Below, piece by piece: positions 51,801 through 54,800 of a DNA stretch of 64,000 nucleotides; within the stretch, counting starts at the first letter, position 1; each line of letters opens with the position of its first letter. Position numbers and translations under genes: made by a program. This stretch comes from Bolinopsis microptera. Its lineage: Eukaryota; Ctenophora; Tentaculata; Lobata; Bolinopsidae. Below the pieces are notes generated by a model. It did not search any database. It saw nothing but the letters and a program-made list of their open reading frames with translations, and had not been told where the DNA came from. Location of the stretch: assembly GCF_026151205.1 (NCBI RefSeq), contig NC_087078.1, forward strand, positions 4,915,675 to 4,979,674, written 5' to 3'.

Positions 51801-54800
51801 GCTAAACTGTGTAACCTGCAGAGTGTGTACGGTTAAACTGTGTAACCTGCAGAGTGTGTACGGTTAAACTGTGTAACCTGCAGAGTGTGTGCGGCTAAAC
51901 TGTGTAACCTGCAGAGTGTGTACGGTTAAACTGTGTAACCTGCAGAGTGTGTACGGTTAAACTGTGTAACCTGCAGAGTGTGTGCGGCTAAACTGTGTAA
52001 CCTGCAGAATGTGTGCGGCTAAACTGTGTAACTTGCAGAGTGTGTGCGGCTAAACTGTGTAACCTGCAGAGTGTGTACGGTTAAACTGTGTAACCTGCAG
52101 AGTGTGTACGGTTAAACTGTGTAACCTGCACACAGTGTGCCCAGAGGCTGCAAAAAGTATTTAGGGTGATATTTGCTTTCCAGATAAGTTTAGCCTGATC
52201 TGATCAGAAATAATCTGAATTTTCTAACAAAAAAAGAATTAAGGGGCTATCATTTTTGGTTCTTGAGATATCTTGAATCATATACACCAAATTGGTATGA
52301 AATTTATGAATAAAATTCAATAGGATAAGAATTAATGGATGAATTGGTCGCATATAAACTAGAATAATAATCTCTAAACATGTATAAAACCATAAACATT
52401 GATTTTCATCATTATTATATGGAGTTAGGGGCCAGATCCAATAAAAATTGGGTTAAAAATACGAAATTTCGATTTTTGCAGGCAAAATTCGATGTTTTCA
52501 TCATTTTTGAAGGACAAAATTTCGTTCGCATGGTACCAAAGTGCAGAATCAACTTCCAGATCCCAGTTTTGGGAACTATTAACTAAGTTATTTGTTATGC
52601 CTGATACCTTACATTGACAGAAAAAACATAATGGGGATCCCAAATTTGTCATCTGACACCTTCCCATGGCCATAAGTACCCCCAGCCTCCCTCAAAAAAT
52701 TTGACTGCCAAAATATGGGGATATCACTATTTTACCCTTAACTAATCATGGGGGCAGTTTAAGAGTCTCCACATGTTTTTTAAAGTAACCTTTAGGTATG
52801 GTTATGCCTAAGAATGACTATTTGGGAACTATTTTCAGTTACTGCCCTAAAATTTTGGTAATTTTATTGAAATTAGGGTCCTTTAAAGTTAAAAAAGGGC
52901 TAAATCTACCATTTTTAGACCTTAAATTGCAAAAATAATGATTTCTGAACTGTTTGAGAGAATAAAGATTGCTTTTTAAGTGTTTTTGGTCATTGTAAGG
53001 TCCGGAAACACTTGTTGAGGTGATTTAAAGGCTTTAAAAAAGAAAATATCAGCAATTTGGGGCTAAATTACCTTATTTTGTAAGCGCGTAACTCAATTTA
53101 GCTCAAAATAACATTGTTTTTGTCCACGAAAATTCGAATTTTGATTAAAATAAATAATAAATAAATAAATTCTAACATTTATTACACGCTTCGACATTAA
53201 AATATACCCAACAAAGATGTATATTAAAGTCATTCAAGCGAGACTTAGTGTTGAAATAGCAAGATTATGGACTTTTTAAACAGTTCAGATTTTATGAACA
53301 AATATTTGTATGAAGTTACCAAAATTATGCACTTTCATATCAGTTCAGACATTATGGACAAATATTAGAAATATTATCAAAAGCTAGTTGGAAATAAAAC
53401 GTCTTTAGGGCATTTTTAAAACATTCTACAGATGATAATGATCTCACTGAGTAGGGTAGTTCATTCCAAATTTTTGGTCCACAGAACATAAATGCAGCAT
53501 CTGTTCGTCTGAAATGAGGAGCAGGAGGAACTTTCAACAAATAAAAGTCATCATCTAGTCTGGAACTTTGTCTTCGTACTTCCCTTAGATAAAAGCCATG
53601 TATGGAGGTATCAAATGAAAGCTCTTGATAACCTCTTTCCATTTAAAACACAAAGAAGTAGTTTATAATTGATATAAGTGATAAAATGGTCTAAAAATGG
53701 AATCAAAAAGTCCTAAAATTCACAAAATTTCTGTCTAATCTTAAACCTTTGATGGCCCATAAAAAAATCATGCCACAATATCACACTGTAAATTTTTCTG
53801 AGATTACTCTAAATGTCCTATACTTACAGATAGCGTAAATTATGGATGCTCATCAAAGTGAATTTGTCACTTATTTTTGTAATTTGTTCAAAAATATGGC
53901 AAAAAACGGCAAAAAAATGTAATTTTACACCAAAAATCAGGTTAAATCAATATATGAGGTCAAAAATCCTTCTAATCATCTTGAAAACCCCTTTAAACGA
54001 TTTCTCATGCAATTTTAGGTTGGATAGGGTAGTTTTAAATTGAAAATAGGCTGGTTGAAGAAAAATACTGACTTTTTGCAGAAAATCGGGCTCGCGGGCA
54101 CACTGTGCTGCAGAATGTGTGCGGCTAAACTGTGTAACCTGCAGAGTGTGTGCGGCTAAACTGTGTAACCTGCAGAATGTGTGCGGCTAAACTGTGTAAC
54201 CTGCAGAATGTGTGCGGCTAAACTGTGTAACCTGCAGAATGTGTGCGGCTAAACTGTGTAACCTGCAGAGTGTGTGCGGCTAAACTGTGTAACCTGCAGA
54301 GTGTGTACGGTTAAACTGTGTAACCTGCAGAATGTGTGCGGCTAAACTGTGTAACCTGCAGAGTGTGTACGGCTAAACTGTGTAACCTGCAGAATGTGTG
54401 CGGCTAAACTGTGTAACCTGCAGAGTGTGTGCGGCTAAACTGTGTAACCTGCAGAATGTGTGCGGCTAAACTGTGTAACCTGCAGAATGTGTGCGGCTAA
54501 ACTGTGTAACCTGCAGAGTGTGTGCGGCTAAACTGTGTAACCTGCAGAATGTGTGCGGCTAAACTGTGTAACTTGCAGAGTGTGTGCGGCTAAACTGTGT
54601 AACCTGCAGAATGTGTGCGGCTAAACTGTGTAACCTGCAGAGTGTGTACGGTTAAACTGTGTAACCTGCAGAGTGTGTGCGGCTAAACTGTGTAACCTGC
54701 AGAGTGTGTGCGGCTAAACTGTGTAACCTGCAGAATGTGTGCTGCTAAACTGTGTAACCTGTAGAATGTGTGCGGCTAAACTGTGTAACCTGCAGAATGT

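What the first reader, a model, noticed from the sequence alone, without database searches (positions are those of the whole stretch)
52131..54107. Non-autonomous element with RAG/Transib-type ends: CACAGTG, 12- and 21-bp spacers, shared nonamer, 5-bp target duplication
Both ends carry the exact canonical RSS heptamer CACAGTG and the same nonamer-like GCAAAAAGT, at 12 bp on one side and 21 bp on the other; CTGCA is duplicated at the insertion. Removing the element with one CTGCA restores an intact 31-bp satellite monomer, so the borders are certain to the base. Heptamer/spacer/nonamer ends with unequal spacing are known from Transib and ProtoRAG. The nonamer matches the vertebrate ACAAAAACC at only 6 of 9 positions, and a 21-bp spacer is not 23, so whether this is a Transib or a ProtoRAG-related family is open. 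A family mobilised by RAG-like enzymes in this genome would be of interest for the origin of V(D)J signals.
Basis: partly seen in the sequence, partly recalled or inferred. Interest (0 to 1): 0.88.

Follow-up and report, generated by a model that had tools for sequence, protein, structure and literature searches.

The report
Comb-jelly jumping gene with antibody-signal-like ends
The window carries a short, non-coding copy of a cut-and-paste transposon whose two ends resemble, unequal spacing included, the DNA signals that vertebrates use to assemble antibody genes; it belongs to a known transposon group (Transib) and sits in what is very probably a comb-jelly genome.

Summary
The element at 52131-54107 is one of at least ten two-ended copies (a ~1.53-kb unit); 10 of 10 have exact 5-bp duplications and keep the 12/21 spacing. 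An autonomous partner (C6:5380107-5384454) shares the 12-bp tip at one end, has a TGGTG duplication, 11/20 spacing, and a transposase whose best solved relative is a Transib (6pqn, 3e-8). So this is a Transib, not a RAG1-RAG2 (ProtoRAG) transposon.

The genome holds a second Transib branch with CACAGTGG ends and an apparently intact element carrying the RAG1L tail motif Cx2Cx3GHx4C. There, 95 ends show only two spacings, ten bp apart; 38 of 38 facing pairs combine short with long; 20 of 20 checked have 5-bp duplications. Assembly statistics match the ctenophore Bolinopsis microptera. The window element has C6-type ends around an interior shared with a family of the other branch.

Asymmetric Transib ends and ctenophore Transibs are already in print. 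New here are these families, the near-one-turn offset in both branches, and the end exchange. A 12/23-like pairing rule is inferred, not shown.

The parts
52126..52130 (.). 5-bp target duplication, left copy (CTGCA)
   Evidence: empty site restores the 31-bp period
52131..52137 (+). short (12-bp spacer) end: heptamer CACAGTG
52138..52149 (+). 12-bp spacer of the short end (TGCCCAGAGGCT); first 5 bp shared with the other end
52150..52158 (+). nonamer-like GCAAAAAGT of the short end
52757..53150 (.). interior shared (with 53591-53999) with family 2, whose ends are of the other Transib branch
   Evidence: 82% over 801 bp for a copy without insert (L033)
53151..53590 (-). nested later insert of about 440 bp, absent from the other two-ended copies; looks like the 3' end of a non-LTR retroelement (label recalled, no family match)
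   Evidence: ORF 53352-53642 without Pfam match
53591..53999 (.). second stretch of the interior shared with family 2
53991..54107 (-). long-end region homologous to the 5' end of the autonomous element at C6:5380107-5384454
   Evidence: 72.5% over 120 bp, end to end; z 11.7 beyond the tip
54071..54079 (-). nonamer-like GCAAAAAGT of the long end
54080..54100 (-). 21-bp spacer of the long end
54101..54107 (-). long (21-bp spacer) end: heptamer CACAGTG
54108..54112 (.). 5-bp target duplication, right copy (CTGCA)
51514..52130 (.). 31-bp satellite array, left of the insertion
54108..55415 (.). 31-bp satellite array, right of the insertion

Best explanation
It is a non-autonomous DNA transposon of the Transib superfamily, mobilised in trans by a RAG1-like Transib transposase of the type encoded at C6:5380107-5384454. 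Shown: precise ends, 5-bp duplications at every two-ended copy checked, end-by-end homology with an element that encodes such a transposase, and a fixed pairing of one short with one long end in every two-ended element found. Inferred: the transposase nicks at the CACAGTG border, makes a flank hairpin and inserts the excised element with a 5-bp stagger. It binds the heptamer with its catalytic core and the inner motif with another domain (NBD or C-terminal tail). Because the inner motif lies about one helical turn further in at one end, an asymmetric synaptic complex forms that prefers a long and a short end together, as the 12/23 rule does in V(D)J recombination, here without any RAG2-like partner.
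For: Borders and duplications: 10 of 10 two-ended copies. Empty site restored. Young copies: pairwise identity 95.5-99.7% among the ten.
Autonomous partner: element C6:5380107-5384454, 4348 bp, TGGTG on both sides. The 48 bp before it recur at other places without the element: five matches stop exactly at its border (bases 1-48 of the query) and a sixth 7 bp short. Its ends are homologous to the matching window ends beyond the tip (long to long z 11.7, short to short z 5.2), while the crossed pairings sit at background (z -0.9 both). Its 3' border recurs in 4 further copies: three have the 11-bp spacing (one of them with CACATTG), one has an extra base.
Transposase: best PDB hit 6pqn (HzTransib; name recalled), 3.2e-8. 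Second-branch proteins: 6pqn 8.9e-23 and 1.3e-18, amphioxus RAG1L 4e-12 and 1.9e-16, RAG1 2.1e-8 and 6.5e-10; Pfam RAG1 over cut-off.
Geometry in the second branch: 95 ends with only two spacings, 10 bp apart, reversed control 0; 76 of the 95 form 38 facing pairs, 38 of 38 mixed; 20 of these 38 checked, 20 of 20 with 5-bp duplications. Family 2: 17 ends, two spacings, control 0; 6 facing pairs, 6 of 6 mixed (paired by eye).
In both autonomous elements the long end is upstream of the transposase gene and the short end downstream.
Duplications are G+C-rich: 54% over 36 against 38% for the window.
Against: That the C6-type enzyme moves the window family rests on end homology alone. Its own long tip reads CACAGTGCGCC, not CACAGTGTGCCC, and its motif spacing is 11/20 rather than 12/21. 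Among the other C6-type copies looked at, two on C9 match only internal parts and show no ends, two 5' ends lack a clear heptamer, and several matches carry stops; two of the four further 3' ends have identical flanks and may be one duplicated insertion. Beyond the tip the two window ends share little but the 11-bp word (z 0.5). Within the C6 element the 9-bp word shared by the two ends is reached in 42 of 2000 shuffles, and in family 2 the shared word is only 6 bp (753 of 2000), so those assignments lean on homology to the other families. All copies of a family descend from one founder, so 38 of 38 is not 38 independent tests. No binding or cleavage was tested.
Confidence: 0.9

Rival explanations
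1. The element is a Transib, but the unequal spacing has no function: the enzyme reads only the outer ~12-17 bp, and the inner motifs are inherited passengers.
For: PMC7204232 (passages) proposes that invertebrate RAGL enzymes rely mainly on the terminal 15-17 bp and are rather insensitive to asymmetry. PMC8289069 (passages) says that most Transib families have symmetric ends. The inner motifs of the two branches differ in sequence (A-rich GCAAAAAGT versus CATAGG). Apart from the shared word the two window ends are not similar (z 0.5).
Against: The offset (9-10 bp) is held in both branches and in six families, some with closely similar ends, and 38 of 38 facing pairs are mixed. An identical 15-bp word at 6 and 16 bp in L048 is reached by 0 of 2000 shuffles.
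Confidence: 0.3
2. The ends belong to a RAG1L-RAG2L (ProtoRAG-type) transposon family.
For: The heptamer is the vertebrate consensus; the second-branch proteins also match amphioxus RAG1L; L048 carries the Cx2Cx3GHx4C tail typical of RAG1L.
Against: 6pqn scores better than RAG1L for L047, L048 and C6. Both autonomous elements (3.9 and 4.3 kb) have no frame over 84 codons outside the transposase gene region on either strand. The Pfam RAG2 search gave 0 hits, with a silent control.
Confidence: 0.03
3. The ends belong to another superfamily with CAC-starting ends (CACTA, hAT, Chapaev) and only resemble Transib.
For: Several superfamilies start with CA or CAC (recalled).
Against: 5-bp duplications in 36 of 36 two-ended elements checked over all families; elements with homologous ends encode Transib/RAG1-type transposases.
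Confidence: 0.01

Closest known systems
Subgroup I Transib transposons (Tao et al. 2022, PMC9435367, main text read in full; figures and supplement not held)
   Same: Single RAG1-like transposase, asymmetric ends, RAG1L-type C-terminal tail (exact motif in L048). The paper counts 6 Transib-like proteins in ctenophores and names Mnemiopsis and Pleurobrachia sequences.
   Different: These families, their non-autonomous copies and the end exchange are not in the text read. Whether their spacings equal those in that paper's Fig. 1g could not be seen.
Transib5 of Drosophila and Transib2/N1/N2/N3 of Anopheles (cited in PMC8355894, passages read)
   Same: 12/23 (+/-1) asymmetric spacers with heptamer and nonamer-like motifs.
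   Different: Insect elements; offset of about 11 bp rather than 9-10. Their subgroup was not tested here.
HzTransib (PDB 6pqn; identity of the entry recalled)
   Same: Closest solved relative of all three transposases.
   Different: Symmetric ends according to PMC8289069 (passages). The segment between the zinc-binding cysteines and the following Leu-His is about 31 residues, against 63-73 here.
ProtoRAG of amphioxus (PMC8289069, passages; PDB 6b40)
   Same: Asymmetric ends with an outer heptamer-like and an inner element; 5-bp duplications; C-terminal tail motif.
   Different: 27/31-bp spacing, two genes (RAG1L and RAG2L); lower similarity to the proteins here than 6pqn.
Vertebrate 12/23 recombination signals
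   Same: Exact consensus heptamer CACAGTG; one end with a 12-bp spacer; A-rich inner box.
   Different: Nonamer 6 of 9; the other spacer is 21, not 23; flanks a transposon, not gene segments.

Membership tests
Transib superfamily | 5-bp target-site duplications | tested here: met
   10 of 10 window-family copies; 36 of 36 two-ended elements checked over all families
Transib superfamily | Terminal inverted repeats beginning CAC with an RSS-like heptamer | tested here: met
   CACAGTG at both ends; identical 12-bp tips in the window copy
Transib superfamily | RAG1-like DDE transposase encoded by the autonomous partner | tested here: met
   C6 protein to 6pqn 3.2e-8; second branch 8.9e-23. The D, D and E positions align with 6pqn/RAG1 motifs; which residues are catalytic is recalled.
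Transib superfamily | Only one gene, no RAG2-like gene in the element | tested here: met
   Frames of 80 codons or more on both strands of L048 and C6 elements: outside the transposase gene region only one of 84 and one of 80 codons
Transib superfamily | Window family actually moved by this enzyme | not testable with these tools
   Only end homology
Subgroup I Transib (PMC9435367) | Asymmetric terminal repeats | tested here: met
   12/21, 11/20 and 14/24; subgroup II can also be asymmetric, so this alone does not decide
Subgroup I Transib (PMC9435367) | Type I C-terminal tail (Cx2Cx3GHx4C) | tested here: inconclusive
   L048 exact; C6 has three of four ligands; absent from the L047 ORF
Subgroup I Transib (PMC9435367) | RAG2-binding alpha11-alpha12 segment retained | tested here: inconclusive
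   Length only: 63-73 residues against about 31 in 6pqn; no structure made
Subgroup I Transib (PMC9435367) | Position in the transposase tree | not tested
   Reference sequences not held
RAGL / ProtoRAG | RAG2-like kelch gene beside the RAG1-like gene | tested here: not met
   No second gene in either autonomous element; PF03089 0 hits with silent control
Vertebrate 12/23 RSS | 12- and 23-bp spacers and nonamer ACAAAAACC | tested here: not met
   12 and 21 bp; nonamer 6 of 9

The most novel reading that the evidence does not exclude
A 12/23-like pairing rule works in comb jellies with a single RAG1-like protein and no RAG2: ends whose inner box is offset by about one helical turn are used only as long/short pairs. 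The matched pair of ends behaves as a detachable cassette that can be exchanged around unrelated interiors, the step needed for such ends to become recombination signals.
Probability: 0.4. Interest if true: 0.78.

Novelty: new member of a known kind. Interest (0 to 1): 0.5.

Why it matters
PMC8355894 (passages) ties recognition of 12/23 asymmetry in vertebrates to RAG2; PMC9435367 derives asymmetric ends from an ancient Transib ancestor. This genome offers material to decide whether asymmetric pairing needs RAG2: an apparently intact one-gene Transib (L048) with the RAG1L-type tail, 95 ends of its kind in two exact spacings, and a second branch (C6 and the window family) with the canonical heptamer. 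Testing long/short against long/long and short/short pairs would show whether the rule exists without RAG2 in a lineage that branched off at or near the base of the animals.

Tried and rejected
Considered and rejected: a ProtoRAG-type family (no second gene; best relative is 6pqn); other superfamilies (5-bp duplications throughout, Transib enzyme); assembly artefact (ten copies in different flanks). My first guess of a sponge host was dropped after the karyotype fit to Bolinopsis microptera.

Led nowhere: COX1 search for a mitochondrial contig, 0 hits. Viral-contig scan with the L047 protein, nothing. Genome-contig scan with alignment A2 not run, because no stretch was conserved enough. Pfam on the three C6 ORFs, nothing. 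RAG2 search silent in genome and controls. Further C6-type copies: two 5' ends degenerate, two C9 copies without ends, L110 and L111 without any match.

Not used: structure prediction and fold search. Their stated rule names loci from other tools than those that gave me these loci, so I did not send them. No tree was built, for lack of reference sequences.

Full report
Observation. The window has CACAGTG at 52131-52137 (+) and 54107-54101 (-), GCAAAAAGT 12 and 21 bp further in, and CTGCA on both sides. Removing the element and one CTGCA leaves the 31-bp satellite period unbroken across the junction. The 1977-bp length, however, includes a later insert of about 440 bp (about 53151-53590) that the other two-ended copies lack.

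Family. The left end searched against the window's own genome (264.65 Mb, 232 contigs) found further copies, as did the right end, where 40 of 54 candidates were scored. I fetched 16 copies. Ten have both ends, and 10 of 10 have exact 5-bp duplications: CTGCA, CAATG, CTGCA, GGGGG, TACTA, GAGCG, CCAGG, CGTTG, CTAAG, TACTG. Six show one end within the fetched stretch (L039-L044). Among the ten, all left ends have 12-bp spacing; nine right ends have an exact nonamer at 21 bp, and the tenth (L032) has a substitution within it. One left heptamer is CATAGTG. Pairwise identity is 95.5-99.7% over the columns held by at least 8 of the 10 (1533 columns, gaps left out). A pattern search that allowed 5-20 bp between tip and motif found 23 ends with only two spacings (12 short, 11 long) and a reversed control of 0; that pattern could not see anything shorter than the 12-bp form.

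Autonomous partner. Pfam RAG1 (PF12940) found two loci over its cut-off. A protein search with one of them found a more distant transposase on C6. That gene lies in an element at C6:5380107-5384454, flanked by TGGTG on both sides. The 48 bp in front of it recur elsewhere without the element; five of six matches stop exactly at the border. Its 3' end is CACAGTGTGCCC..., the 12-bp tip of the window family, with GGAAAGAAT at 11 bp; its 5' end is CACAGTGCGCC..., with GGAAAAAAT at 20 bp. With the tips excluded, the window's long end aligns to the C6 5' end (z 11.7, 0 of 1000 shuffles) and the window's short end to the C6 3' end (z 5.2, 0 of 1000). The two crossed pairings are at background (z -0.9 each), and the two window ends compared with each other give z 0.5. 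Four further copies share the 3' border: three with the 11-bp spacing, one of these with CACATTG, and one with an extra base; two of the four have identical flanks. Two further 5' ends are degenerate, and two C9 copies show no ends. The C6 exon-3 protein matches 6pqn (3.2e-8) and no RAG1 chain at E up to 1. The gene appears to have two introns; several GT-AG choices exist for each, so the exact model is open. Outside the transposase gene region there is no frame over 80 codons.

Second branch. The two RAG1-domain loci have other ends. L048 (C3) is a 3927-bp element flanked by AGATA, with CACAGTGGGC tips and CATGCTAGCATAGGC at 16 bp (5') and 6 bp (3'). Of seven GT-AG choices, one joins its two reading frames to the very sequence that L047 has uninterrupted; that 752-codon reading has 6pqn 8.9e-23, amphioxus RAG1L 4e-12 and RAG1 2.1e-8. 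A genome pattern for these ends gave 95 ends (45 short, 50 long), two spacings only and control 0. 76 of them form 38 facing pairs within 6 kb, all combining short and long; 19 ends are unpaired. I checked 20 of these 38 elements: 20 of 20 have 5-bp duplications. A further family ('family 2', CACAGTGGTCCGGG tips, CATAGG at 14 and 24 bp) gave 17 ends (9 short, 8 long), two spacings and control 0; its six facing pairs, read from that list, are all mixed. The pattern misses variant tips such as one end of L024. Four of the seven family-2 loci held (L022-L025) show both ends, with duplications CACAT, GACGG, CTTGC and TTGAC (read by eye). Family-2 ends are homologous to the corresponding L048 ends (z 9.4 and 6.1). 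Copies within a family share a founder, so these counts show stability, not independence; the independent evidence is that two branches with different tips and inner motifs keep an offset of 9 or 10 bp.

End exchange. Bases 627-1425 of the 1533-bp unit (L033) match family 2 at 82% over 801 bp, while the outer parts do not; the outermost parts instead match C6. The window family therefore combines an interior shared with one branch and ends of the other. Which direction the exchange took is not known.

Host. Thirteen contigs of 15-26 Mb hold 97.5% of the assembly, the largest 26.2 Mb, N50 20.8 Mb. PMC11797021 Table 1 (passage) gives Bolinopsis microptera 265 Mb, 13 chromosomes, largest 26.2 Mb, N50 20.8 Mb, GC 38.5%; the window's GC is 37.9%. 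The identification rests on these numbers; the table lists 346 scaffolds against 232 contigs here. No COX1 was found.

Mechanism. Shown: precise ends, 5-bp staggered insertion, conserved RAG1-type motifs, fixed long/short pairing, G+C-rich duplications (54% over 36 elements against 38% for the window). Inferred from established Transib and RAG biochemistry (recalled): nick at the heptamer border, flank hairpin, blunt transposon ends, 5-bp staggered strand transfer. Inferred here: the inner motif is read by a second DNA-binding domain, and the near-one-turn offset makes the synapsis asymmetric. This has not been tested.

What is known. PMC9435367 (main text read in full; figures and supplement not held) gives subgroup I Transibs asymmetric ends, a type I C-terminal tail and a retained RAG2-binding segment; it says subgroup II has both symmetric and asymmetric ends, reports 6 Transib-like proteins in ctenophores, and describes a pelagophyte RAGL element with 4/13-bp spacing, also a 9-bp offset. 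PMC8355894 (passages) names insect Transibs with 12/23 asymmetry. PMC8289069 (passages) gives 27/31 bp for ProtoRAG and says most Transibs are symmetric. PMC7204232 (passages) gives the tail motif Cx2Cx3GHx4C and 5-bp duplications. L048 has that motif exactly; C6 has three of its four ligands; the L047 ORF lacks it. The zinc-binding segment is 63-73 residues long here against about 31 in 6pqn. I therefore file the elements as Transib, probably subgroup I, with the subgroup not proven. The listings of searches for Transib with Porifera, ctenophore and asymmetry terms (titles and starts of abstracts) showed no description of these families, but the original Transib paper is not held and most subscription papers are missing.

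Verdict. Its value lies in making the origin of the 12/23 rule testable with a one-protein system.

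Noticed in passing
Genome ends listed (e.g. G000:C1:7788955-7790056): A ~1.1-kb non-autonomous family with CACAGTGGGC ends lies on all 13 large contigs with almost uniform length (28 of the 38 facing pairs are 1102-1115 bp), which suggests recent amplification.
   Followed up: partly
window 52757-53150 and 53591-53999; L022-L028: The interior of the window family is shared with family 2, whose ends belong to the other Transib branch: an exchange of ends or of interior.
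   Followed up: partly
L047 (G000:C2:19696000-19705900): A 571-aa transposase ORF without stops has its long end but no 3' end was seen in the 9.9-kb locus. About 0.9 kb beyond the long end lies an orphan short end, and a piece coding for the C-terminal part lies on the opposite strand next to the long end: nested insertion, inversion or the start of domestication.
   Followed up: no
L042, L043, L044: Solitary long ends (230-250 bp) lie, in L042, between a 2OG-Fe(II) oxygenase ORF on one strand and a weakly PHD-like ORF on the other; L042 and L043 are 99.8% alike over 2.9 kb and L044 about 87% alike, so a larger repeat seems to carry a captured transposon end.
   Followed up: partly
G000:C5 12.62-14.08 Mb: Many broken Transib transposase fragments of both branches cluster in this stretch, which also holds two window-family copies (one two-ended, one one-ended); possibly a transposon graveyard such as pericentromeric DNA.
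   Followed up: no
L030 (insert of about 1.2 kb) and window 53151-53590: Two window-family copies were hit near the same place (unit bases ~1020 and ~1060) by different pieces that look like retroelement 3' ends (label recalled), one ending in (ATTT)n.
   Followed up: no
L048, beside the element (bases 1-1881 of the reversed locus): A 627-codon open frame that looks like part of an LTR-retrotransposon pol gene (label recalled) lies next to the L048 Transib; left alone.
   Followed up: no
window 12945-14711, 45929-46612, 58593-58897: Other conspicuous tandem arrays: a 68-bp unit with a C-run (26 copies), a 48-bp unit into which a RING-finger reading frame runs, and a 305-bp GA repeat.
   Followed up: no
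window 48635-49948 (-): A 437-aa ORF that looks like part of a retroelement reverse-transcriptase gene (label recalled; no Pfam match), overlapping an ATAC-rich tandem repeat at its start.
   Followed up: no
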